Assembly: GCF_016464425.1 (NCBI RefSeq)
Contig: NZ_JADDKQ010000006.1
Coordinates: 1-64,000, forward strand
Direction of reading: 5' to 3'
Length of the DNA stretch: 64,000 nucleotides
DNA from: Actinotalea solisilvae
Lineage (GTDB): Bacteria > Actinomycetota > Actinomycetes > Actinomycetales > Cellulomonadaceae
Below are positions 8,436 to 20,561 of this stretch, piece after piece. A program made the position numbers and the translations under genes. Under the pieces are notes generated by a model. It saw only the letters and a program-made list of their open reading frames with translations, was not told where the DNA came from and searched no databases. How positions within the stretch are numbered: the stretch's first letter is position 1; each line of letters begins with the position of its first letter.

Positions 8436-10052
8436 TCAGAAGGCGATCGCGCCCGTCGCGAGCAGCGCGACGCCCACCACCGCGCCGACGACGGCGACCG
8501 CGAACACCACGCGCTCGCGCGCCGAGAAGACGCGCCGCCCCTGCTCGCGCCGGGCCATCGCGAACAGCACGGTCGCGGGCGCGTAGACGAGGAACGAGAC
8601 GAGCAGGAACGCCCACCCCGCGGCCCAGAGCAGGAAGGCCGCGTAGAGCGTCGCGAGGCCGGCGACGACCAGCTCGCGCGTCCGGGCCGAGGGTTGGCCG
8701 GTGTAGGTCTCGCCGGTGGCGGCGAGCTGGAGCGCGTACCCCGCGACCAGCAGGAACGGCACGAGGACGAGCGCGCTCGTGAGGTTGAGCGCGAACGAGA
8801 ACGCGTCCTCGGAGAGCAGCGTGACGACGAGCAGCACCTGCGTCGTGATGGTCGACAGGAGCAGCGCGTTGCCGGGCGCGTCGGCCTTGTTGGTGCGCGC
8901 GAGGAAGCGCGGCAGGTCGCCGTCCTCGGCCGCGACGAGCAGCACCTCGGCCGCCATGAGCGTCCACGCGAGGTACGCGCCGAGCACGGAGATGACGAGG
9001 CCGACGCTCACGAGCCCCACGCCCCACGGCCCGACGGCGGCCTCGAGCACGCCCGCCATCGACGGCTGGCGCAGCTCGGCGAGCTCGGCCGCGGGCAGCA
9101 CCCCGAAGGACACGATGGTCACGGACGCGAAGATCGCGAGCACCGCCAGGAAGCCGAGCACGGTCGCGCGGCCGACGTCCGTGCCGCGCCGCGCGTGGCG
9201 CGAGTAGACGTTGGCGCCCTCGACGCCGATGAACACGAACACCGTGGTGAGGACGGTGCCGCGCACCTGCTCGAGGAGGGAGCCGGCGTCGGGCCCGCCC
9301 TGAAGGTTGTCCGCGAACACGGCGGGGTCGAAGACGGTGAGCGCGAGGACGATGAAGACGACGATCGGGATGACCTTGGCGACCGTGACGATCCGGTTGA
9401 GCGTCGCCGCCGCGCGCACGCCGCGGCGCACGAGCAGGAAGAACGTCCAGACCCCGACGCTCGCGAGGACGAGGGCCAGGGGCGTGTCCCCGGCGCCGAG
9501 CGCGGGCAGCAGCGCGCCCGCGGTCGACATGATGAGCACCCAGTAGGTGACGTTCCCTGCGCAGGCGCTCGCCCAGTAGCCGATGGCCGAGAAGAAGCCG
9601 ACGTACTGGCCGAAGCCGGCCCTGGCGTAGGCGTAGACGCCGGCGTCGAGCTCGGGCTTGCGCACGGCGAGGCTCTGGAACACGAGAGCGAGCAGCAGCA
9701 TCCCGGTGCCCGCGATCGCCCAGGCGACGAGCGACCCGACGACGCCGGTCTCACCCGCGAAGGTCGCCGGGAGCGAGAAGACGCCCGCGCCGACCATCGA
9801 GCCGACGACCATCGCGGTGAGAGTCCCGACGCCGAGCGTGACGCCGCGGTGCGGGGCGGTGGCGGGTGGCAGCGTGGTCCCGGTCCCGGTCCCGGTCCCG
9901 GTCCCGGTCCCGGTCCCGGTCCCGGTCCCGGTGCCGGTGCCGGTGCCGGTGCCGGTCCCGGTCCCGGTGCCGGTGCCGGTGCCGGTCCCGGTCCCGGTCC
10001 CGGTCCCGGTGCCGGTGCCGGTGCCGGTGCCGGTGGTGTCGGGCGTGCTCAC
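8436..10052 (-). CDS. APC-family amino acid exchanger with N-terminal Thr-Gly repeat
   Basis: An intact paralogue of the exchanger at 2610-4098, about 538 residues. The membrane part begins near residue 65 ([18 protein letters not shown]) and continues through about twelve hydrophobic helices to the end TGAIAF. The GTG start gives VSTPDTTG, parallel to VSTQTT in the other copy. Between start and membrane domain lie 26 Thr-Gly dipeptides absent from the paralogue. By similarity it is a basic amino acid exchanger (arginine/ornithine or similar); substrate is not proven. It is followed on the same strand by the META-domain gene. A ribosome site GAGGA lies upstream. Confidence 0.85.
   Translation of the reverse strand: MSTPDTTGTGTGTGTGTGTGTGTGTGTGTGTGTGTGTGTGTGTGTGTGTGTGTGTGTGTTLPPATAPHRGVTLGVGTLTAMVVGSMVGAGVFSLPATFAGETGVVGSLVAWAIAGTGMLLLALVFQSLAVRKPELDAGVYAYARAGFGQYVGFFSAIGYWASACAGNVTYWVLIMSTAGALLPALGAGDTPLALVLASVGVWTFFLLVRRGVRAAATLNRIVTVAKVIPIVVFIVLALTVFDPAVFADNLQGGPDAGSLLEQVRGTVLTTVFVFIGVEGANVYSRHARRGTDVGRATVLGFLAVLAIFASVTIVSFGVLPAAELAELRQPSMAGVLEAAVGPWGVGLVSVGLVISVLGAYLAWTLMAAEVLLVAAEDGDLPRFLARTNKADAPGNALLLSTITTQVLLVVTLLSEDAFSFALNLTSALVLVPFLLVAGYALQLAATGETYTGQPSARTRELVVAGLATLYAAFLLWAAGWAFLLVSFLVYAPATVLFAMARREQGRRVFSARERVVFAVAVVGAVVGVALLATGAIAF
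9876..10031 (-). repeat. 26 tandem hexamers coding (Thr-Gly)26
   Basis: On the + strand the unit is GGTCCC or GGTGCC repeated 26 times without interruption; on the coding strand these are ACC-GGG/GGC-type Thr-Gly codon pairs. The two variants occur in blocks of 9, 4, 2, 3, 4 and 4 units, a pattern typical of slippage or unequal crossing-over. Because the unit is two codons, copy-number change would keep the frame. Copy number in the assembly may be unreliable. Confidence 0.95.
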
Positions 10053-10198: not shown

Positions 10199-10271
10199 GC
10201 GCCTGTAGCTCAGGGGATAGAGCACCGCTCTCCTAAAGCGGGTGTCGGCAGTTCGAATCTGCCCAGGCGCA
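10199..10271 (+). tRNA. tRNA-Arg (anticodon CCT)
   Basis: A 73-base cloverleaf: acceptor GCGCCTG pairs with CAGGCGC, D arm with TAGCTCAGGGGATAGAGCA, anticodon stem CCGCT/AGCGG with loop CTCCTAA (anticodon CCT), and T arm GGCAG-TTCGAAT-CTGCC. The discriminator is A and no CCA is encoded. Its 3' part is duplicated at 20517-20561, marking it as the integration site of the mobile element that follows directly. Confidence 0.97.
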
Positions 10272-10274
10272 CAG
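10230..10274 (+). repeat. attL, tRNA-embedded attachment repeat
   Basis: The segment from the anticodon loop to just past the 3' end of the tRNA gene matches 20517-20561 at 43 of 45 positions. This copy completes a fully paired tRNA. It marks the left junction of the element. Confidence 0.88.
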
Positions 10275-10448: not shown

Positions 10449-11246
10449 CTATCTGCGTCGCTTGGCGACGCGGGCGAGGTCGATCTCTGGCGGTGCCAGG
10501 TCAGGCATCGCGTAGACTTCATCAAGACCAAGCGCGCGCAGTTCGCGCTCCACATCGGACAGTGCCGCCCGGAGCCGTCGGTTGATGTGAATGACGAATC
10601 TCTTGCAGAGGCCGACGAGGTCTAGGAGGCGGTCTTCGCTAACGGGCAGGATCTCAGCGTGCATTTGTCCCAGTCGTGAGATATTACGACGCTCGAAGGC
10701 TGAGTCGGCCAGGTACGCGACCACGACGGCGTGCTCGAAGTTGTTGACCGCGTGGGCGACAAACTTGTTCCGCATGTCAAGTAGGAACCGGTGCGAAGCG
10801 CGCTCGTCGTCTTTGAGCCAGTCGTCAGTCAGGCGTTCCGATGCCCGTACCGAGCTGCCGAAAGCCCGCCCATACATCACCAGCGCCGACATCCACTGTG
10901 CGTCGTCAGGGAACCGCCCGCCCTCGGGGCGCGAAGAGGCCCGATCCAGATATGTCTCCGCGAAGAGGCGCGCAAGCTCGAGATCCCGGCGGAGACTGGC
11001 CAAGTCCCGAACCCTGCTACACGACTTTGTATCCACGACGACGACCCGGTATCCCGGCGGGGGGGCGAAGCGAGCTTCGGAGCTGGCCGCCCAGGTTTGG
11101 GTGCGTTGCCAGCCCAGACTGCTGCTACCAACCGTCTTTGCCACGTCGAAGGACACACCGGAGGGCGAAGGCGGCTCCAGGCCGTCCGGCGCGCCTGCGG
11201 CCGTGAGAGTTGGTGGCGTGTCGCCGCCCGCATCGTCCTCTGTCAT
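10449..11246 (-). CDS. Unknown protein with HEPN-like RN-x4-H motif
   Basis: A 265-residue soluble protein I cannot assign to a family. The first 65 residues are low-complexity and proline/serine-rich. The rest is largely helical, with RNKFVAH at residues 159-165, an R-x5-H pattern typical of HEPN-superfamily RNases, inside a long alpha-helical context (RFLLDMRNKFVAHAVNNFEHAV). It ends in a basic KRRR. It lies just inside the left end of the mobile element, transcribed toward attL and divergent from the next two genes. A defence or toxin role is plausible from motif plus location only. Confidence 0.6.
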   Translation of the reverse strand: MTEDDAGGDTPPTLTAAGAPDGLEPPSPSGVSFDVAKTVGSSSLGWQRTQTWAASSEARFAPPPGYRVVVVDTKSCSRVRDLASLRRDLELARLFAETYLDRASSRPEGGRFPDDAQWMSALVMYGRAFGSSVRASERLTDDWLKDDERASHRFLLDMRNKFVAHAVNNFEHAVVVAYLADSAFERRNISRLGQMHAEILPVSEDRLLDLVGLCKRFVIHINRRLRAALSDVERELRALGLDEVYAMPDLAPPEIDLARVAKRRR

Positions 11247-11402: not shown

Positions 11403-11780
11403 GTGTCCAGGCGTCGCACTGCAGTGTCGGACCTGATCGAGCTCGCTGCTATCGAGGGTGACGGGGCGCAGGAGCACCTAGCGACGGTGTACGAGTGGCG
11501 CCATGGGCAGAGAGTTGCGCAGGGCAAAGCGTTGGCTGCGGCTGGCCTCTCCGTTGTCTTGGCCATCATTCTGCCGATTGTCCAGCCGGACTCGTCTAGG
11601 CCGGTCGAGGGCCTCGCGATTGCGATTGCGCTCGGGTCCGCGGGAGTCCTTCTCGTTGCTGGCGCGATCGTGTTCTATTCAGCAGCGTCGCTTCACCGCG
11701 AGTACATCATGGCACAAGCGCTCCTGGAAGAGCTCAAGACCGTCCGCGGGTTCCTGAAGTTGTACCGAACGAGGCGCTGA
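11403..11780 (+). CDS. Two-helix membrane protein, unknown
   Basis: A 125-residue protein with an N-terminal soluble part and two membrane helices (about residues 44-61, LAAAGLSVVLAIILPIV, and 70-92, LAIAIALGSAGVLLVAGAIVF), followed by a charged helix ending TRR. It starts at GTG six bases after CATACT with no ribosome site, so it is probably leaderless. The next gene begins three bases after its stop and also encodes a membrane-anchored protein, so they form an operon. No family recognised. Confidence 0.6.
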   Translation: MSRRRTAVSDLIELAAIEGDGAQEHLATVYEWRHGQRVAQGKALAAAGLSVVLAIILPIVQPDSSRPVEGLAIAIALGSAGVLLVAGAIVFYSAASLHREYIMAQALLEELKTVRGFLKLYRTRR

Positions 11781-11783
11781 AAA

Positions 11784-12476
11784 GTGGGAATCGAGCCGCT
11801 GATTGCGGCGGTCGCCTCCGCGCTTGCGGGCAGTACGATCGCGGTCTCCATCTTCTCTCTGGTTCAAGACTGGGTTCGGCGCTTGCTTCAGATGCGCGCG
11901 CTGTCGCGTGTTCGAACCGCTGACGTTCTGGCTGCGAGTGAGATCGACCGTCTCGGTCAGCTTCTCTTTGTAGATCTCGGGGCAACGAGTCTCGCGGACT
12001 ACACGAAGAACAAGGGCGTCCGTGATTCCGTCCAGGCGGCCTTCGACGAAGTCGCGCGATTCCTAGGTGAGCGCTCTGATGAGTCAGTCGGCCCGGTGGG
12101 GCCGCCCTCGTCTGAAAGCGGTGGAGGTGCCGGCCCACGCGGCGACGCGATGCCAGGCCGGGACCTCGCCTGGGCACTTGGCGACAGGGGCGACTCCTGG
12201 GAGGCCCTAGCTCGGGCGCGCCGCGCTCTTGAGATGCGCCTCAGAGCACTACTCACGCCCGAAGATCGCGACAGGGGCGCGCGCCTCGGTGCCGGGGCGC
12301 TCTTGCGGCTGCTCAACCGGCGCGGGGCGATCGACGAAGGGATAGCGGACCAACTTCGCTACGCCGTGAGTGTGATGAACCGGGGCATCCACGGTGACGA
12401 TGTCTCGCAAGAGGAGACCCTCGAGGCGCTCTGGATCGTCGACCGGTTCCTCTCGACGAGCCGGGCGATGCCCTGA
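11784..12476 (+). CDS. Membrane-anchored protein with HEPN/DUF4145-like C-terminus
   Basis: A 230-residue protein. An N-terminal hydrophobic helix (LIAAVASALAGSTIAVSIFSLV) anchors it; a linker rich in Gly, Ser and Pro follows at about 100-130. The C-terminal 90 residues are helical and resemble the end of DUF4145/HEPN-type domains: RALEMRLRALL, LLNRRGAIDE, then VMNRGIHGDDVSQEETLEAL. In active HEPN proteins an arginine usually precedes the NR; here it is M198, so RNase activity may be lost. GTG start, three bases after the upstream gene. Function unknown. Confidence 0.6.
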   Translation: MGIEPLIAAVASALAGSTIAVSIFSLVQDWVRRLLQMRALSRVRTADVLAASEIDRLGQLLFVDLGATSLADYTKNKGVRDSVQAAFDEVARFLGERSDESVGPVGPPSSESGGGAGPRGDAMPGRDLAWALGDRGDSWEALARARRALEMRLRALLTPEDRDRGARLGAGALLRLLNRRGAIDEGIADQLRYAVSVMNRGIHGDDVSQEETLEALWIVDRFLSTSRAMP

Positions 12477-12513: not shown

Positions 12514-13680
12514 TCAGGCCTCGGACGGCGGCCAAGCTGCGGGCGGCTCTTCTACACTCGACGAGTGGCGCGGCTCGATCGCTCGCGGCGCCTGCATCAG
12601 CGGTATCACGGGCAGCCGTTCCATCGCCTGCCAGGTCGCCTCGTTGAATAGGTGCCCGTAGAGGTCCATCGTCATCGTCGCGGTGGAGTGCCCGAGGATG
12701 ACCTGCACGGCCTTGACGTCCGCGCCGGCGGCGATCAGCAGCGAGGCGGCGGTGTGCCGCAGGTCGTGGATCGTCGTCCCCTCGACACCCGCCCGCCGCG
12801 TCGCGTCCATCCACCCCGACCGCGCCCGGAAGTTGGTGTTCGTCCACACGCCGCCGGTCGGGCTCGGGAACAGGTACCCGCCCGGCGCCGTCCCCGCGAC
12901 CCGCGTCCGCACGTACTCATCCAGCGCCGCCGGCACCGGCACTGTCCGGGTCTGATGCGTCTTCGTTGGCCCGAACACCGCCCCGCTCGTCCGCTTCGAC
13001 TGCGTCGCGGCCCGGTGCACCCGGACGCCGAGCCCGTGCGGGGTCTGCACGACGTCGTCGACCCGCAGCGCGGCCATCTCCGAGAACCGGCACCCGGTGG
13101 TCCCGAGGAACAGCACGACCGGCTGGCACAGCGGCGGCACCGCCATGACCAGCCGGCCGAGCTGCTCAGGCCGCAGCCAGTGCGGCTCGCGCTTGGTCCC
13201 CCCGCGCGGCAGCGCCACCATCCGTGCGACGTTCACGCTCAGCCGCCGGTCGCGGATCGCGTAGTCGACGACCAGTCGCATCATCGACAGCGCCCGGCGC
13301 CGGGTCGCCGTCGCCAGCCCACGCGCCGTCAGGGCGGACATCACCCGCTCGACGTCGGCGGCCGAGATCCCGGAGATCGGGTATGCCCCGATCTCCGGGA
13401 TCACGTACTTGTCCAGCAGGAACCGCGTGGTCTCCTGGCTGCGCACCGCCAGGTGACCACGCGAGGCCTGCCACTCCTCGGCCAGCGCCGCGAACGTCAT
13501 CCGCCCGCGCGCCGGGTCGATCCACGAGCCGGCGTCGAGCTTCGCGAGCTGGTCAGCCTCCCAGCGCTTCGCATCGACCCGGCGCCCGAACGACCGCTGC
13601 GCGATGACCCGGCCCTCGAAGAACACCTTCGCGCGCCAGGTCACCTTGCCCGTCGGATGCTGCCGTCTGGTGACGGACAT
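12514..13680 (-). CDS. int: Tyrosine recombinase (integrase)
   Basis: Integrase of 388 residues that would catalyse insertion of the element at the tRNA-Arg site. The N-terminal arm-binding region is followed by a SAM-like core-binding domain (about 62-150) and the catalytic domain (170-360). The active-site set is complete: R198 in TTGCRFSEM, H305 and R308 in HDLRHT, H331 in LGHS, and nucleophile Y341 in LYGH. The ATG overlaps the stop of the excisionase reading frame (ATGA), showing coupled translation. Intact, so the element may still integrate. Confidence 0.95.
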   Translation of the reverse strand: MSVTRRQHPTGKVTWRAKVFFEGRVIAQRSFGRRVDAKRWEADQLAKLDAGSWIDPARGRMTFAALAEEWQASRGHLAVRSQETTRFLLDKYVIPEIGAYPISGISAADVERVMSALTARGLATATRRRALSMMRLVVDYAIRDRRLSVNVARMVALPRGGTKREPHWLRPEQLGRLVMAVPPLCQPVVLFLGTTGCRFSEMAALRVDDVVQTPHGLGVRVHRAATQSKRTSGAVFGPTKTHQTRTVPVPAALDEYVRTRVAGTAPGGYLFPSPTGGVWTNTNFRARSGWMDATRRAGVEGTTIHDLRHTAASLLIAAGADVKAVQVILGHSTATMTMDLYGHLFNEATWQAMERLPVIPLMQAPRAIEPRHSSSVEEPPAAWPPSEA

Positions 13681-13891
13681 CAGCGCCGCTTCACCGGCAT
13701 CGTCGGCTCGCGCTCGACCCACGCCGCCGGGAGGAGGATCACCGTGCCGAGGCGCCGGTACGGGATCTGCTCGTGCTCGACCAGGTGGGCAGCGTCCGGG
13801 GCGGCACCCCGAGCACCCGCGCCGCGTCCTTCACGCGGTAGTACTGCCGGGCCGGAGTGGCGGGGACGGCGTGCTGTGCGGTGGTGGTCAT
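13680..13891 (-). pseudogene. xis: Excisionase (AlpA/HTH_17 type), frameshifted
   Basis: A small winged-helix excisionase gene directly upstream of int. From ATG behind GGAGAAGG it reads MTTTAQHAVPATPARQYYRVKDAARVLGV-type sequence, the helix-turn-helix start, then runs out of frame. The expected second half (LVEHEQIPYRRLGTVILLP, then AAWVERE) is present in another frame and stops exactly at the integrase ATG as ATGA. One missing base near 13786-13796 explains it; the gene span is 212 bases, one short of 71 codons. It is either a sequencing error or a mutation that would hinder excision. Confidence 0.8.
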
Positions 13892-13927: not shown

Positions 13928-16819
13928 TCAGCGACCGAGCACCGGTCCATCGGCGGACGACGGCGGCGGCGCGGTCAAGCGGTGCGGCGCGGGCTGTGGA
14001 GGCTGCGGGTTCCACGGTTGCTGTGGACGCACGGGCGGCACGAGGGGCGCGGTCCGACCGGGGTGGTAGCTGTCCCAGGTCTCGGTTGCGCTGGGCTCGG
14101 CGTGGCTGGTCGCGAGGATCTGCTCGAGCACCTCGCGGCCCGACGACGGCGCGTGGCCGGGCAGGCAGTCCGGGTCGCCGTGGTCGATGACGACGTAGGC
14201 GCGGTTGGTGTGGCGGCCGCGGCTCATCGCGACGTAGAGGTCTTCGCGGCCCATGCCGGGGGTCGCGATGGTGTGGGTCTCGTCGACGGTCATGCCTTGG
14301 GTGCGGGCGATGGTGGTGGCGTAGCCGAGCTCGACGTGGTCGGCGACGTAGTCGGCGGGGAGGCGGACGGTGGGCGCGTCGGCGTGGTTGGCGGGTCGGA
14401 CGCGGAGGGACCCGTCGGGCAGGACGGCGGTGACGTCCCACAGGGCGCCGTTACGGACGAACCCGTCGGCGGTGGCCAGGCGTCGGTGGTTGCGGCGGGT
14501 GACGATCCGGTCCCCGACGCCGGCGGTCAGCCCGTCGTGCAGGCTCACCCCGGCGGGGAGGGCGTCGCCGCTGGTGATGCGGTCGGCGCGGATGCGGGCG
14601 TTGAGCTCGCGGACGGTCCGGTTGTCGACCGCCTGCAGGACCGCGACTCGGCCCTGCTCGCTCGCGGTGGTGACGGCCTCGATGGCGGCGTCGAGCATCG
14701 CGTCGTGCCCGCCGGAGGCGATCGCGCCGTGCGCCTCGTAGGCGTCGAGCGCAGCCGGGTGGGCGCGGCGCAGCTCGAGGCTGGCGCGCGCCTCCCACGG
14801 ATTCGCGAACCGCCAGAGGCTGGTGAGCTCGGCGGTCGGCCCCCGCCGGGCGAGCATGCCGAATGCGCCGCCGGCATCGACCGAGCCACGCTGCAGGTGG
14901 TCCCCGACCAGCAGCACCTTCGCCCTCGCGGCGCGTGCCTGCTCGACGATCGCGGCGAGGGTGCGGGTGTCGGCGAGGGAGGCCTCGTCGACGATGACGA
15001 GCTGCCTGGGGCAGAACCGCCACTGGTCCTGCTCGGCGCGCAGCCGCCAGTGCTCCTCGTTGGCCGCCCGCTGCCCCTGGTAGTCACGCGTCGCCATCCG
15101 GGCAACGGCGTCGGCGTAGCGCAGGGCCCGGGTGGTAGCGCCGTCGCCGGTGGACTCGTGCAGCCACTTCGCCGTCGTCTCACACGGCACCCCGAGCGAC
15201 TCCGCCAGCGCCCGCGCAGCGGTGGCCGACGGCGCGAGCCCCACGACGGACCCGATGCCGTGCCGCCAGAACGAGGTGATCGCCGCGAGCGTGGTGGTCT
15301 TGCCCGACCCCGCCGGCCCGACGAGCACGTCGAGGAGCCGGGCGGAGGTGATGACGGCTTCGGCGGCCGCGCGCTGGTCGGGGGCGAGGGCGCCGAGGTG
15401 GTGCTCGGTGCGTAGCGGGATGGCGCCGAGCATCTCCGCCGGCCGGTGCGGTGCGCCGGTCGTCTCGGCGGCGTCGATCAGTACCTTCTCCGCCCCGAGC
15501 AGCTCGGTCGAGGTGAACGGCGACTCCCCGACGCGCCGCGTCGTCGGGTCGCGGCTGTCGTCCAGGTGCACGCACGCCGCCGCGGCCTCGGTGGTGATCT
15601 CGTTGAGCAGCTCGCGCCGCTCGGCGGCCGAGGCCATCCGCAGCAGCTTCGAGGCGCGGACGGCGGCGGCGCCGAGGTTCCACGTCGTCCACACCGACCG
15701 CCGTGTCGAGACGTCATCGAGGACCTGCGCGACCATCGCCGCCCGCACCTCTGGGCCGACGTCGTGCGCATGCAGCGGCCGCCCGTAGGCGCCAGTCAGA
15801 GCGCGGGCTGCGAGGTCGCGGGGCTCGAGCCCGGTGAGCGCGCCGGCGCGGTTCGCCCAGTCCGCCAGCAGGTCCGCCAGCGGTCGGACCGTCTTCGGCG
15901 GCCGCGTGGCGCGGGTCAGGTGCTGCCGCGCCCGCGTCGTCTCCACCCGCGTCGGCGCCCGGCCATGGCTCTCCTCGAACTCGGCGAGCCACTCCTGCTC
16001 GGCGCAGTGGATCGCCTCCGCCCTGGTCGAGAAGTGCGCGAGCAGGTCATCGCCGACCCCGTCGACCTCGAACGCCAGGTTCCGCCGGGGTCCGCGGTCG
16101 CGCGTCGACCACTCCACCGGCAGCCGCCGCGCGAGCTCGTCCGCAAGGAGGGCGTCATAGAGTTCGGACACGGTGACGACGGCGGCGTGCACGGTCCGCC
16201 CGTCCAGGCTCCGCCAGGCGCCGTCGGGGCCTTGGACCTTGTTGGCGATGACGACGTGGGTGTGCAGGTTCGGGTCAGCGGCCCGGGTGTCCCAGTGGTC
16301 GAACGCCGCGGCGAGCATCCCGCGGGTGCGGACCTGATGACGCCCGGCGTCGCCGGTGCGCGTGCGGATGACGCGCTGCTCGACGAACTCCAGCGATGAC
16401 GCCAGCGCCGCCCGGTGCGCGTCATAGACGATGACGCGCGTCGCGTCATCGGCCAGCGCCCAGAGGACGGATACGGACTTGGGCGCGGTGAACGTCAGGT
16501 CGAACCCGACGACCGCATGACGCTTGCCGTCATCGAACCGGCTATGCGGCCGGCCGAGCGCGTCCTCCGTCAGCGGGTCGGCGCCGTCGCGGAACACCGC
16601 CGTCATCGCCGCCTCGGTCACCACGTCACCCGGGCGCAGGCGCCGCCTGTCGTCGCCGAGCCCCGCGAGCCCCTCGCCGCACCAACGACCGGCCGGGTCC
16701 CCGGTTTGCTCGTAGTAGGCGGTCAGCGACGCACCTGCGTCCAGGCCGGCGTCACCCGCGGCGACGTGCCGGGTTAGGTACGCGTACCCGTCGCCGGCAG
16801 TCAGCTTGTGCATCGACAT
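13928..16819 (-). CDS. Relaxase-helicase, TrwC/TraA (MobF) type
   Basis: A 963-residue conjugative relaxase that would nick oriT and unwind DNA for transfer. The N-terminal TrwC domain starts right at LTAGDGYAYLTRHV, with candidate catalytic tyrosines (Y12, Y14, Y35, Y36) and the metal-binding histidines in FDHWDTRAADPNLHTHVVIAN... (H175, H186, H188). A superfamily-I helicase follows, Walker A GPAGSGKT at 501-508 and IVDEASLAD as the Walker B. The C-terminus is proline-rich. I chose the ATG ten bases after a GGAAGGGGGG ribosome site; GTG codons just upstream are alternatives. No VirD4/TraG gene accompanies it. Confidence 0.92.
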   Translation of the reverse strand: MSMHKLTAGDGYAYLTRHVAAGDAGLDAGASLTAYYEQTGDPAGRWCGEGLAGLGDDRRRLRPGDVVTEAAMTAVFRDGADPLTEDALGRPHSRFDDGKRHAVVGFDLTFTAPKSVSVLWALADDATRVIVYDAHRAALASSLEFVEQRVIRTRTGDAGRHQVRTRGMLAAAFDHWDTRAADPNLHTHVVIANKVQGPDGAWRSLDGRTVHAAVVTVSELYDALLADELARRLPVEWSTRDRGPRRNLAFEVDGVGDDLLAHFSTRAEAIHCAEQEWLAEFEESHGRAPTRVETTRARQHLTRATRPPKTVRPLADLLADWANRAGALTGLEPRDLAARALTGAYGRPLHAHDVGPEVRAAMVAQVLDDVSTRRSVWTTWNLGAAAVRASKLLRMASAAERRELLNEITTEAAAACVHLDDSRDPTTRRVGESPFTSTELLGAEKVLIDAAETTGAPHRPAEMLGAIPLRTEHHLGALAPDQRAAAEAVITSARLLDVLVGPAGSGKTTTLAAITSFWRHGIGSVVGLAPSATAARALAESLGVPCETTAKWLHESTGDGATTRALRYADAVARMATRDYQGQRAANEEHWRLRAEQDQWRFCPRQLVIVDEASLADTRTLAAIVEQARAARAKVLLVGDHLQRGSVDAGGAFGMLARRGPTAELTSLWRFANPWEARASLELRRAHPAALDAYEAHGAIASGGHDAMLDAAIEAVTTASEQGRVAVLQAVDNRTVRELNARIRADRITSGDALPAGVSLHDGLTAGVGDRIVTRRNHRRLATADGFVRNGALWDVTAVLPDGSLRVRPANHADAPTVRLPADYVADHVELGYATTIARTQGMTVDETHTIATPGMGREDLYVAMSRGRHTNRAYVVIDHGDPDCLPGHAPSSGREVLEQILATSHAEPSATETWDSYHPGRTAPLVPPVRPQQPWNPQPPQPAPHRLTAPPPSSADGPVLGR

Positions 16820-17177: not shown

Positions 17178-17648
17178 GTGTCTGGCACCATCCGGCTCAT
17201 GGGGAAGCCACGGGCGGCGGTCGAGCACGAGTGCATCTTCTGCGCGATCGTTGCCGGCCGAGCGGAGGTCAGCCTCGTCTACGACGACGCGACAGTCATG
17301 GTTTGGATGGCCCTGCACCCCGTGGTCCCCGGGCATCTTCTCGTCGTGCCACGCCAGCACGTCGTCGGCCTCGAGGACATCGACGCGGCCACGAGTGCCC
17401 ACGTCTGGTCGGTCGGTCACGAGATGGCGCGAGCCTTACGCCGCTCCGCCATGCGATGCGAGGGGATCAACGTCTTCCTGTGTGACGGCGAGGCCGCGTT
17501 CCAGACGGTCTTCCACTTCCACCTGCACGTCATCCCGCGCTACGACGGCGACGGGTGGACGATCCTTCCCGACGAGGTGGAACGTGAGCGGCCGCTCCTT
17601 GACGCCGAGGCTCAGGTGATCCGGGACGCCATCGCATCGGCCGACTGA
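17178..17648 (+). CDS. HIT-family hydrolase
   Basis: A 156-residue histidine-triad protein, likely a nucleotide-phosphoramidate or dinucleotide hydrolase. The zinc-binding cysteines (HECIFCAIVAG) and the active-site triad HFHLHVIPR are both present. I chose the GTG six bases after a strong GGAGGAG site; ATG codons 15 bases upstream and 21 bases downstream are alternatives. It is cargo of the mobile element, followed after about 40 bases by an acetyltransferase on the same strand. Specific substrate unknown. Confidence 0.88.
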   Translation: MSGTIRLMGKPRAAVEHECIFCAIVAGRAEVSLVYDDATVMVWMALHPVVPGHLLVVPRQHVVGLEDIDAATSAHVWSVGHEMARALRRSAMRCEGINVFLCDGEAAFQTVFHFHLHVIPRYDGDGWTILPDEVERERPLLDAEAQVIRDAIASAD

Positions 17649-17691
17649 CGCGCCGCGTGGCAGCGGCCGTGCTGTGTAGAGGGGAGTGGTA

Positions 17692-18219
17692 GTGGAGCTT
17701 CGCGCGCTCAGGATCGACGACGAAGCCGAGGCAAGGGCGGCGCACGCCGAGCTGGCGACCGAGGGCTTCGCCTTCTTGCCGTTCTACGACCCGAACGAGC
17801 CATGGGCCGCGTACCTCGAGCGGGTCGAGCGCCTTCGCTACGGTGCCGGCCTTCCGCCCGGGTACGTGCCGTGGACCGACCTCTACGCCGCGGTTGACGG
17901 CGTTGTGGTCGGGCGCGTTTCCGTGCGGCACCGGCTCACCGAAGCGTTGCTCCAGGTTGGCGGCCACATCGGCTACGGAGTCCGGCCCGCGTACCGGCGG
18001 CGCGGGTACGCGACCGAGCTGCTCCGCGCCGGGCTCGGCGTCGCTCACGGTCTGGGCATCGACCAGGCGCTCGTGACCTGCGACGACGAGAACGTCGGCT
18101 CAGCTGCGGTGATCGAGCGGTGCGGCGGCGTGCTCGAAGACGTCCGATCGGTACCCGGGGGCTCACCGAAGCGGCGCTACTGGGTTCCGACGAGAGAAGC
18201 GCTGAGTCCCGCCCGCTGA
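17692..18219 (+). CDS. GNAT-family N-acetyltransferase
   Basis: A 175-residue acetyl-CoA-dependent transferase. The GNAT core is visible as IGYGVRPAYRRRGYATELLRAGL (acetyl-CoA pyrophosphate loop RRRGYA) and the later ALVTCDDENVGSAAVIERCGG. The GTG start follows AGGGGAG by five bases; another GTG lies two codons upstream. It probably shares a transcript with the HIT gene. Members of this shape modify small molecules or proteins; the substrate cannot be told from sequence. Confidence 0.87.
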   Translation: MELRALRIDDEAEARAAHAELATEGFAFLPFYDPNEPWAAYLERVERLRYGAGLPPGYVPWTDLYAAVDGVVVGRVSVRHRLTEALLQVGGHIGYGVRPAYRRRGYATELLRAGLGVAHGLGIDQALVTCDDENVGSAAVIERCGGVLEDVRSVPGGSPKRRYWVPTREALSPAR

Positions 18220-18463
18220 CCCCGGCCCGCGACTGCCGGTGACGGCCGCTGTCGAGCCGATGACGGGCCGCGACTCTTCTTGCATGGATGCGTGTCCACC
18301 CAGCCTGCGGATGTGGGGCGGGGGCTGTGTCCTTCGTTTGGGACGACGGGACTTGCAGCGGCGCCTCGCCCGCCGAGAGCTGCGACGTAGGATCCTGGAT
18401 GCGGCAGGTTGGCCGCCGCTCCGCGAGGGGCGCTGGAATGCGCGACATGCTGACGGGAGGGCT

Positions 18464-19282
18464 GTGACCTCACGGGCGGACGCGACCTCGACGCCTTGGA
18501 GGCGTACCCGGTGGGCGGCAGCGATCAGCATCCTCGCCGTATGTGGAGTTGGCCTTCTTCTAGGACGGCTCGAGGTGTGCAAGGACGTCTTGGTCCAGGA
18601 CGAGGTGCGTAGCATCTGCGCCCCGCCGGTGATCACCGACGCGAGCGTGCTGACGTTCGCGCTGCTAGTGGTTCTCTTGGTCAGCCCTGAGATGGGTGAA
18701 GTGGGAGTCTTCGGGATCTCGCTCAAGCGGCGCGTCGAGTCCGCGGAGCGCGAAGCCGAACGGTCCGCCAAGAAAGCGGAGCAACTTGAAGTCCAGCTCG
18801 CCTTGCACAGTGTTCGCCTCGACAGCGTTGCGCAGAGCGTCGCCTCGGCCGCTGCCCAGGCAACCGTCGGCCCCATCCTCATCGGCGATGCGGCCATCAG
18901 ACAGTCGTTGTCTGAGTTTGGCGAAAAGGCTCGTGCTTTCGAGAGCGGTGAGAGTCGTCCGGGAACAGACGGCGCAGAAGTGGCCGAGAGGCCCGACTAT
19001 GAACGCATCGGTAGGCTCATAGACAACTGGGAGCGCATCGCCGCCGCCCTTGATTTGCCTCCTCGCCGGGTTCTCCGCGACGGCACGTCATTTTCGGGCG
19101 TCCCACAGCTGTCGGCCGAGGAAGCGTCGCGCTTCCGCGCGATATTCGATGAAGAGCTGCAGGTAATCCGCGCTGCGCGCAATACGGTTGCGCACGCTCG
19201 CCCGCTAGAGGCGGAGGAGTTGGCGCTTGCGGTGGACCTGTCCGACCGACTTTTTGAACTGCTGGCTCGCGCGGGAGGTTAG
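18464..19282 (+). CDS. Membrane-anchored protein with HEPN-like RN-x3-H motif
   Basis: A 272-residue protein of unknown family. Two membrane helices lie near the N-terminus (about 18-34 and 60-75, VLTFALLVVLLVSP), followed by a basic segment and a long coiled coil (VESAEREAERSAKKAEQLEV). The C-terminal domain (about 178-272) is helical and contains RNTVAHA at 239-245, an R-x4-H pattern as in HEPN RNases. GTG start behind GGGAGGG. The layout, membrane helices plus coiled coil plus HEPN-like end, parallels the protein at 11784-12476. Possible membrane-tethered RNase effector; unproven. Confidence 0.65.
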   Translation: MTSRADATSTPWRRTRWAAAISILAVCGVGLLLGRLEVCKDVLVQDEVRSICAPPVITDASVLTFALLVVLLVSPEMGEVGVFGISLKRRVESAEREAERSAKKAEQLEVQLALHSVRLDSVAQSVASAAAQATVGPILIGDAAIRQSLSEFGEKARAFESGESRPGTDGAEVAERPDYERIGRLIDNWERIAAALDLPPRRVLRDGTSFSGVPQLSAEEASRFRAIFDEELQVIRAARNTVAHARPLEAEELALAVDLSDRLFELLARAGG

Positions 19283-19306: not shown

Positions 19307-20014
19307 CTACCACTTGCGGTACGGCTCGAGGTGGGGTGTGTAGGGCTCCGCTGGTGGCGTCGCTGACCACCCGTGAGCGCGCAGGACGAGGGCAGCCTCG
19401 TCCTGAAGATCCCGAACGGCTGTCCTGAACTGTCTCATTCGCCAACGCTCCCGGCCCTCGCGTAGGACAGACTCCCATCCTGGTGCGGCGTCAACCCCGC
19501 AGTCGCGGATCAACATCTCGAGGACGTCCTCGAGGCACGGGCGAAATCTCTCGCCGCCGACAGGGAGGTGGACTTTGGATAGGTCGTGGGGGCTCTGAAC
19601 GCGTGTTGCGTCTGCCGTGTTGGCAATCGACAGGAGGTGGGTGAAGGCGCCACGTTCGGCGTGGAACTGCCAATGGCTTATCGGGTCCGCTCGCATATCG
19701 CTCCTGTACTCGAGGCGCAGGAGAGGCGTCCGGTCCAGCGTCGAGAAGAGACCGACGTCTGTTCTGGTCGTCTTCAGATGAAGGCCCGAATGATCCATGG
19801 TTTGGTAGAGCGCTACGGCCAAGTCGGCAAGGTGCTCGCCCTGGACGGTGAGCGGAATGCGGCGGCTGGCTGCGGTCTTGCCGGCCGGTCGCACAGCGTA
19901 TCGCTCGCCAAACTTGACGGAAACGACGTCGACGTTCTTGCCGAAGGTGCGCCGGAGCAGGTCCGCGACTTCGCCCGCGAACTCCCTTGAGCGGTCCGCC
20001 AAATCAGAAGTCAT
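19307..20014 (-). CDS. Unknown protein, second gene of an overlapping pair
   Basis: A 235-residue soluble protein without a recognised domain. It contains a conserved-looking core SHWQFHAERGAFTHLL and HLPVGGERFRPCLEDVLEML, then a C-terminal helical region with tryptophans and arginines. The start ATG lies inside the last codons of the upstream small gene (11-base overlap) and has no ribosome site, implying coupled translation. Location near the right end of the mobile element, and the small-plus-large arrangement, are like toxin-antitoxin or defence pairs, but no catalytic motif is visible. Confidence 0.6.
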   Translation of the reverse strand: MTSDLADRSREFAGEVADLLRRTFGKNVDVVSVKFGERYAVRPAGKTAASRRIPLTVQGEHLADLAVALYQTMDHSGLHLKTTRTDVGLFSTLDRTPLLRLEYRSDMRADPISHWQFHAERGAFTHLLSIANTADATRVQSPHDLSKVHLPVGGERFRPCLEDVLEMLIRDCGVDAAPGWESVLREGRERWRMRQFRTAVRDLQDEAALVLRAHGWSATPPAEPYTPHLEPYRKW

Positions 20015-20201
20015 CGGGCGAGTCGTTCAGCAGAAAGCTGATCTCCTCCAACTCGGCAACTGCCTCCCACTCCTCGCCGGACAGGGCGCCCGTGCGAGTG
20101 CGTGCGCGCAGCGCGTCGAGCGTCGTCCCGAGTGAGTCGAGGACCTGCTCCCGTCGCGCAAGCAGCTCATCCCTCGTGACCTCGATGGTCCTTGGCGGCA
20201 T
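20004..20201 (-). CDS. Small acidic helical protein, first gene of an overlapping pair
   Basis: A 65-residue protein (MPPRTIEVTRDELLARREQV...), predicted mostly helical, with heptad-like leucines and an acidic end NDSPDDF. AGAGG lies eight bases before the ATG. It overlaps the following 235-residue gene by 11 bases. Size and position suggest an antitoxin or accessory subunit; no DNA-binding motif is seen. Confidence 0.55.
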   Translation of the reverse strand: MPPRTIEVTRDELLARREQVLDSLGTTLDALRARTRTGALSGEEWEAVAELEEISFLLNDSPDDF

Positions 20202-20415
20202 GTGATCACCTCTCGCTCCGGCCTCCATCTTGCCGCCCGGTACCGACACGCGCGAGGAGGTCCGTAACCTCCGAGTGTCCAGCGTGCTCGGCGAGATATC
20301 GAGGGCGTGTTGGCGAGGGAGCGGCACCGCTCGTGAGACGATACGGCGGCCGCTCTGGCCCTCCGTCGATGTGGCGGCCGCCTTGCCGCAGCGCGGCGGA
20401 CTGGCCGGCTGCCGT

Positions 20416-20516: not shown

Positions 20517-20561
20517 CTCCTAAAGCGGGTGTCGGCAGTTCCAATCTGCCGAGGCGCACAG
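20517..20561 (+). repeat. attR, degenerate copy of the tRNA-Arg 3' end
   Basis: Matches 10230-10274 at 43 of 45 positions. The two changes are G to C in the T loop (TTCGAAT becomes TTCCAAT) and C to G where the T stem meets the acceptor. It lacks the 5' half and could not form a tRNA. Confidence 0.88.

What the first reader, a model, noticed from the sequence alone, without database searches (positions are those of the whole stretch)
19307..20201. Overlapping small-plus-large gene pair at the element's right end
The 65-residue gene overlaps the 235-residue gene by 11 bases, with no ribosome site for the second. Arrangement and location fit a toxin-antitoxin or defence pair, but neither protein has a known motif.
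Basis: partly seen in the sequence, partly recalled or inferred. Interest (0 to 1): 0.5.

Follow-up and report, generated by a model that had tools for sequence, protein, structure and literature searches.

The report
Unnamed toxin-antitoxin-like gene pair
A small gene and a larger gene that overlap at the end of a mobile DNA element belong to an unnamed gene pair of actinobacteria that is nearly always found together and is organised like a poison-and-antidote system, although it has not been shown here that the large protein is toxic.

Summary
A 65-residue gene (20004-20201, -) overlaps a 235-residue gene (19307-20014, -) by 11 bases; the second has no nearby ribosome site. The pair lies just inside the right att repeat of a 10.3-kb integrative element in tRNA-Arg(CCT). 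Both genes are real: relatives in two other genera share 74-76% (large) and 66-68% (small) of residues, dN/dS 0.13-0.29. Pairing is nearly obligate: 76 of 77 distinct full-length large genes have the small gene directly upstream, the exception lying at a contig end; conversely 21 of 21 strong small-gene matches in 296 genomes adjoin a large gene. The genes overlap in 57 of 76 pairs, and their distances co-vary (r = 0.81). No Pfam, NCBIfam, PADLOC or PHROG family covers either window protein. The large model (pLDDT 93; helix, seven strands, helices) has no significant PDB match. The closest described system is TumE-TumA: similar organisation and outline of fold, weak small/TumA resemblance, but no detectable large/TumE sequence relation. 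Best reading: an undescribed actinobacterial type II toxin-antitoxin-like family, large = toxin, small = antitoxin. Toxicity is untested, so this is inference.

The parts
20004..20201 (-). small gene, 65 aa, pI 4.25, predicted three-helix protein; proposed antitoxin
   Evidence: a relative lies directly upstream of the large gene in 76 of 77 loci, the window's own counted
19307..20014 (-). large gene, 235 aa, alpha+beta protein with seven strands in the model; proposed toxin
20004..20014 (-). 11-base overlap of the two genes (translational coupling proposed)
   Evidence: 57 of 76 pairs overlap
20204..20213 (-). ribosome-site-like AGAGGTGATC upstream of the small gene
   Evidence: sequence
20517..20561 (.). 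right att repeat: copy of the tRNA-Arg 3' end
   Evidence: 43 of 45 identical to 10230-10274
10230..10274 (.). left att site in and just after tRNA-Arg(CCT) 10199-10272
12514..13722 (-). tyrosine integrase of the element (context)
   Evidence: PF00589 1.4e-18
13928..16816 (-). TrwC/MobF relaxase of the element (context; the open frame runs on to 17236)
   Evidence: PF08751 4.9e-87

Best explanation
A two-gene type II toxin-antitoxin-like module of an undescribed family, carried as cargo of an integrative mobilisable element. The small acidic three-helix protein (antitoxin) is made first from its own ribosome site; ribosomes ending it re-start on the overlapping ATG of the large gene, so the large protein is made only together with its partner. 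The small protein binds and holds the large one. The free large protein is proposed to stop growth, most likely as an enzyme acting on RNA or the translation apparatus, through the conserved polar residues H114 and the stretch H149-x-P-x-G-G-x-R-x-R-P-x-x-E-D163. Shown here: gene order, overlap, absence of a second ribosome site, near-obligate linkage, co-variation, purifying selection, patchy distribution with several mobile carriers, a confident model. Inferred: translational re-start, complex formation, toxicity, target, catalytic role of the motif.
For: Linkage: a search with the window's small protein alone over all ORFs of the first 38 loci gives 18 hits at E<=0.008, one of them its own copy and two the same gene, all directly upstream of the large gene; with profiles 76 of 77 distinct full-length large genes (73 clusters at 90%, 40 at 50% identity; the window's own counted) have it, the exception lying at a contig start. 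Converse: 21 of 21 small matches with E<=1.7e-9 in 296 genomes (the window's own genome counted) adjoin a large match. Coupling: 57 of 76 pairs overlap by 4-35 bases, 13 do not overlap, 6 have no canonical start in the expected place. Co-variation of distances r=0.805, n=52, best of 1000 permutations 0.139. dN/dS below 0.35 for both genes in 12 of 13 pairs compared. Small acidic, median pI 4.5 of 58, range 4.05-10.7. Patchy: 11 of 296 (phylum), 25 of 394 (class), 37 of 396 (order) genomes (samples overlap, own genome counted, thresholds differ). Mobile carriers: this element; M. abscessus prophage prophiGD102-2, next to the integrase, with a large match at the same coordinates in prophiGD54-1; five plasmid records, one upstream of cas genes; six viral contigs. 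A tandem of two different pairs in G258. Eight loci keep an intact small gene beside a broken large one.
Against: No toxicity or binding data. The excess of broken large genes is what length alone would give (p about 0.14), so it does not show which partner is toxic. The small protein has no recognised DNA-binding domain in the libraries searched, and no operator-like inverted repeat shared with four relatives was seen. Only 1 of 60 neighbourhoods (3-16 kb) contains a recombinase found by four query proteins, against 1 of 20 control stretches, so most copies are not in obvious intact elements. No known toxin fold was matched at E<=0.001 and the best VIA-align Z was 5.0. A 235-aa toxin is larger than most type II toxins (recalled).
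Confidence: 0.62

Rival explanations
1. It is a far-diverged branch of the published TumE-TumA superfamily: large = TumE with a C-terminal extension, small = TumA.
For: TumE is described as two helices packed on a seven-strand antiparallel sheet, predominantly downstream of its partner (PMC10584680, section 8 read); the large model has an N-helix and seven strands. In four of ten TumE loci fetched, the partner gene and tumE overlap by exactly 11 bases. Small versus TumA profiles align over a helical stretch, score 18.6 against a maximum of 12.8 in 60 column shuffles.
Against: Large versus TumE profiles: score 11.7, below the shuffle mean 12.2; hhalign probability 0.1%; no TumE hit among 53 members in Pfam. 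In an ORF-wide ranking the TumE profile puts 0 large proteins in its top 100 and 2 in its top 200, against 1.5 expected. Column shuffles destroy helical periodicity, so the small/TumA score is flattered; the ORF ranking for TumA (32 small proteins in the top 200, 1.4 expected) is confounded by composition and redundancy.
Confidence: 0.25
2. An obligate two-subunit machine that is not toxic: for example a sensor or anti-defence enzyme (large) with a dedicated small adaptor or chaperone.
For: Linkage, coupling and co-variation fit any obligate complex; the large protein is big for a toxin and has a conserved polar motif.
Against: Patchy distribution, mobile carriers, a tandem of divergent pairs, acidic small partner first: all usual for toxin-antitoxin pairs, though not proof.
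Confidence: 0.2
3. A phage- or element-encoded function of the mobile element itself (regulation, exclusion, excision), unrelated to growth control.
For: Pair next to the integrase in the M. abscessus prophage prophiGD102-2 and just inside attR here.
Against: Most chromosomal copies have no detected integrase nearby, so the pair persists without one; in prophiGD04-1, of the same prophage cluster, the same slot holds other cargo.
Confidence: 0.1
4. Chance ORFs in GC-rich DNA.
For: Long spurious ORFs abound in this window.
Against: dN/dS 0.13-0.29 for window versus relatives, conservation across many genera.
Confidence: 0.01

Closest known systems
TumE-TumA toxin-antitoxin superfamily (PF20126 / DUF6516; Nature 2023, PMC10584680)
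   Same: Bicistronic, small partner upstream, short overlap (11 bases in four of ten fetched loci, 4 bases in two), toxin with helices on a seven-strand antiparallel sheet, no confident PDB match according to the paper, small partner with a weakly similar helical stretch.
   Different: Large is 235 aa against 119-136 in the loci fetched; no Pfam match; profile-profile score at shuffle level; conserved motif HxPxGGxRxRPxxED against TumE's FPxHxH; TumE was found in 2 of 100 sampled genomes of the phylum.
Classical type II toxin-antitoxin modules (RelBE, HigBA and others; recalled)
   Same: Small, mostly acidic partner first, overlap, coupling, mobile and patchy.
   Different: No known toxin or antitoxin domain; large protein bigger than usual toxins; no operator recognised.
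att-linked cargo loci of mycobacterial prophages (PMC8092301: section 12 and passages read)
   Same: The M. abscessus MabE1 prophage prophiGD102-2 carries this pair between integrase and lysis genes; prophiGD54-1, same cluster and length, has the large match at the same coordinates.
   Different: The paper's section 12 names att-proximal toxin-antitoxin systems only in prophiGD12-2 and prophiGD04-1; this pair is annotated as hypothetical proteins in the prophiGD102-2 record.

Membership tests
TumE-TumA | toxin matches PF20126 (TumE) above cut-off | tested here: not met
   0 of 53 large proteins list TumE even at E<=10, though HMMER filters drop most weak hits
TumE-TumA | profile-profile relation of large to TumE | tested here: not met
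   hhalign probability 0.1%, score at shuffle level, with only nine TumE sequences
TumE-TumA | fold: helices on a seven-strand antiparallel sheet | tested here: inconclusive
   seven strands and N-helix in the model's secondary structure; no TumE model to superpose
TumE-TumA | small partner homologous to TumA | tested here: inconclusive
   score 18.6 versus shuffle maximum 12.8; pairwise P 0.003, probability 10%
TumE-TumA | toxin downstream of partner in a two-gene operon | tested here: met
   compare
TumE-TumA | inhibits translation, neutralised by partner | not testable with these tools
   needs expression and labelling
type II toxin-antitoxin (as a kind) | conserved two-gene operon, small gene first, overlapping or abutting | tested here: met
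   76 of 77 linked; 57 of 76 overlapping
type II toxin-antitoxin (as a kind) | patchy, horizontally moving | tested here: met
   but most copies have no detected recombinase nearby
type II toxin-antitoxin (as a kind) | one partner toxic alone, other neutralises by binding | not testable with these tools
   no expression or complex data
type II toxin-antitoxin (as a kind) | autoregulation at an operator | tested here: inconclusive
   only an imperfect palindrome over the start codon (20195-20216); no counterpart noted in four relatives
known anti-phage defence systems (PADLOC 2.0.0) | match to a PADLOC model | tested here: not met
   none for the window proteins; 1 of 53 large members hits Cas2 at E 0.0017, taken as chance

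The most novel reading that the evidence does not exclude
A previously undescribed toxin-antitoxin family of actinobacteria whose toxin has a fold without a solved relative and an unknown target, and whose antitoxin (and perhaps toxin) shares a remote ancestor with TumE-TumA, so that the two families form one larger superfamily with the same short overlap.
Probability: 0.3. Interest if true: 0.65.

Novelty: new member of a known kind. Interest (0 to 1): 0.5.

Why it matters
If right, an unannotated family of growth-control or defence modules sits in 4-9% of the actinobacterial genomes sampled, including a prophage type of M. abscessus, and the family libraries searched miss it. It gives a short, testable gene pair with a confident model, no solved relative found, and a defined conserved motif.

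Tried and rejected
Phage tail tube (PF25595, E 0.0014, 19 bits, cut-off 27): 1 of 53 members, below cut-off, rejected. DUF3618 and DUF6400 for the small protein: below cut-off, 1 of 46 members each, rejected. Cas2 hit of one member: single member, rejected. PHROGs: 12 families, each hit by 1 of 53 members, best E 0.0007, rejected. Fold: Foldseek PDB best E 0.13, BFVD best E 0.025, none at E<=0.001; VIA-align 2 best Z 5.0 (actin capping protein, 110 residues, rmsd 3.9), not distinguishable from background for such models. Small model: PDB best E 1.2, an antitoxin chain of HipBST, not significant. PDB sequence searches: large profile (A1, 33 sequences) best E 0.51, small profile best E 0.096, TumE profile best E 1.5. 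A viral-contig scan for more TumE sequences gave none.

Decay asymmetry: eight loci with a broken large gene and the small one kept (G555, G1010, G744, G777, G868 contig 79, G672, Actinomycetospora soli L034, Corynebacterium MSK297 L031), none firmly the reverse; but length alone predicts this at p 0.14, or 0.18 if the near-identical G777 and G868 copies count once. The G672 break lies at a contig end and may be an assembly error. Three degraded large remnants have no small gene (G838, L032, G966).

Counts mended on checking: one search joined separate domains of one frame (letting in the internally deleted G744 copy) and chose small starts with the help of their ribosome sites, which favoured the small gene; repeat the counts with single domains and with starts chosen without ribosome sites (57 instead of 58 of 76 overlapping; 44 of 70 instead of 43 of 69 small starts with a site).

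tRNA adjacency: of 82 non-redundant loci (broken ones included, window not included) 4, 11 and 15 have a tRNA within 0.5, 1 and 2 kb of the large gene, against 2.7%, 3.9% and 5.9% of positions in 20 control stretches of the same genomes (binomial p 0.0003 for 1 kb). The 0.5-kb figure is hardly raised, the control is small, and this is used only as context. The recombinase search of neighbourhoods used four query proteins; among 29 further loci only the two plasmids from which queries came were hit.

Contig-edge fragments L066/L130 and L140 were not used as evidence. In one search the small-gene starts of some loci were doubtful, and seven loci were dropped before the co-variation count (L053, L007, L017, L030, L048, L059, L022).

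Full report
What is there. The large one is 19307-20014 on the minus strand (235 aa), the small one 20004-20201 (65 aa), sharing 11 bases. The small gene has an AGAGGTGATC ribosome site; the large has none within reach. The element is a 10.3-kb integrative mobilisable element: it starts at the 3' end of tRNA-Arg(CCT), repeats 43 of 45 bases of it at 20517-20561, and encodes a tyrosine integrase and a TrwC-type relaxase. The pair is the last cargo before the right att repeat.

Are the genes real? Relatives in Cellulosimicrobium and Cellulomonas (L013, L014) share 74-76% of the large protein and 66-68% of the small one, with dN/dS 0.13-0.16 and 0.23-0.29 against the window. In 12 of 13 pairs of loci compared, both genes have dN/dS below 0.35; in the last the small gene, with few changes, gives 1.08.

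Are they a unit? Searching all ORFs of the first 38 loci with the window's small protein alone, the 18 best hits (E<=0.008) are its own copy and ORFs directly upstream of the large gene, two of them the same gene. After profile building, 76 of 77 distinct full-length large genes (the window's own included) have the small gene immediately upstream; the exception begins 180 bases from a contig start and still shows the small gene's last codons. Those 77 form 73 clusters at 90% and 40 at 50% identity. The weakest four small matches have E from 7e-5 to 6e-3. In the opposite direction, a small-protein profile was run on 296 genomes of the class: 33 matched at E<=0.001, and all 21 matches with E<=1.7e-9 adjoin a large gene by their coordinates. 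Of the 12 weaker matches one (L091) also lies before a partial large gene; the other 11 lie in frames of 69-567 aa, and in the eight of them that came with a locus no large gene was found (three came without a locus). Distances among small and among large proteins correlate at r=0.805 (52 loci, seven dropped), against a best of 0.139 in 1000 permutations.

How are they expressed? In 57 of 76 pairs the large gene starts inside the small one (commonest overlaps 4, 8, 11, 14 and 17 bases), 13 do not overlap, and 6 have no canonical start where expected. I read this pattern as coupled translation with the small protein first; coupling itself was not measured.

What are the proteins? No library names them: Pfam, NCBIfam, PADLOC and PHROGs were searched for both window proteins; the large family was searched in all four and the small one in Pfam. 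Only isolated hits, one or two members each, came up. The large model has pLDDT 92.9 and pTM 0.90: an N-terminal helix, seven strands, then helices. Nothing in PDB or BFVD matches at E<=0.001, and the best VIA-align Z is 5.0. Over 53 sequences H149, P151 and R158 are invariant, and Y103, P111, H114, G153, G154, R156, P159, E162, D163, R188, Q195 and R201 are among the nearly invariant. The window's small protein is acidic (pI 4.25; median of 58 relatives 4.5, range 4.05-10.7; large median 6.8) and modelled as three helices (pLDDT 82, pTM 0.63). By eye it has two subtypes that differ at the C-terminus.

Where does it occur? In 11 of 296, 25 of 394 and 37 of 396 genomes of the phylum, class and order (partly the same genomes, the window's own counted in each); all 22 named genome loci are actinobacterial by their titles (that scan finds close relatives only). 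It also occurs in five actinobacterial plasmid records, one upstream of type I-E cas genes, in the M. abscessus prophage prophiGD102-2 next to the integrase, with a large match at the same place in prophiGD54-1, and in six viral contigs. In prophiGD04-1, of the same prophage cluster, the same slot holds other cargo. Most chromosomal copies have no detected recombinase nearby (1 of 60 stretches of 3-16 kb; control 1 of 20), but a tRNA lies within 1 kb in 11 of 82 loci against 3.9% of control positions.

Comparison with TumE-TumA. I suspected TumE from memory and tested it. PF20126 occurs in 2 of 100 genomes of the phylum sample. With eight plasmid loci I had ten TumE loci, nine usable TumE and nine partner (TumA) sequences. 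Four of these loci overlap by exactly 11 bases. The small protein aligns with TumA over its helical core better than 60 of 60 column shuffles (18.6 against at most 12.8), but with low absolute probability (10-14%). The large protein does not align with TumE, and ranking all ORFs by the TumE profile does not bring up large proteins (0 in the top 100, 2 in the top 200). The published description of TumE, two helices on a seven-strand antiparallel sheet with no confident PDB match, toxic in E. coli, neutralised by the partner and, in the one case tested, reducing methionine incorporation (PMC10584680, section 8), resembles the large model in outline only. So it works, I propose, like TumE-TumA, but it is not filed as a member.

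Literature. A search for five accession or locus names of the large protein found no paper; searches for TumE/TumA, M. abscessus prophage toxin-antitoxin and toxin-antitoxin terms with actinobacteria listed no title or abstract start that I recognised as describing this pair. I read passages and one section each of PMC10584680 and PMC8092301; the rest were seen as listings. A description in papers not held, or in the bodies of papers not opened, is possible.

Verdict. The linkage claim is established; the toxin-antitoxin reading is the best explanation (0.62) but rests on organisation, not on toxicity.

Noticed in passing
window 10449-11246 (-) and 18239-19282 (+): Two further cargo genes of the same element carry an R-x(4-5)-H stretch (RNKFVAH in the 265-aa protein, RNTVAH near the end of the 347-aa protein), as in HEPN ribonucleases (motif recalled); neither has a Pfam hit at E<=0.01 (the second scanned from an internal start at 18353). 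The 347-aa gene converges on the large gene with 24 bases between. The 265-aa protein has relatives on two actinobacterial plasmids.
   Followed up: partly
window 11403-12476 (+): A 125-aa protein with hydrophobic stretches followed directly by a 230-aa protein, both without Pfam hits: another unnamed two-gene cargo of the element.
   Followed up: no
window 17295-18219 (+): A HIT-domain protein and a GNAT acetyltransferase sit between relaxase and the pair as apparent cargo.
   Followed up: no
window 9900-10040 (+): Long run of GGTCCC/GGTGCC hexamer repeats just upstream of the tRNA-Arg gene, inside the reading frame of a neighbouring ORF.
   Followed up: no
L168 (G258) 16-kb stretch: Two different small-large pairs of the family stand in tandem.
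   Followed up: partly
L133 (G744): The large gene lacks an internal stretch (about model positions 95-177) that covers the conserved motif, while the small gene stays almost identical to that of G756 of the same genus.
   Followed up: partly
L100, L101: In two genomes of the same phylum the PF20126 TumE gene is preceded by an ORF of 91 aa with a TumA-like helical stretch, overlapping by 4 bases; it has no Pfam hit above cut-off.
   Followed up: partly
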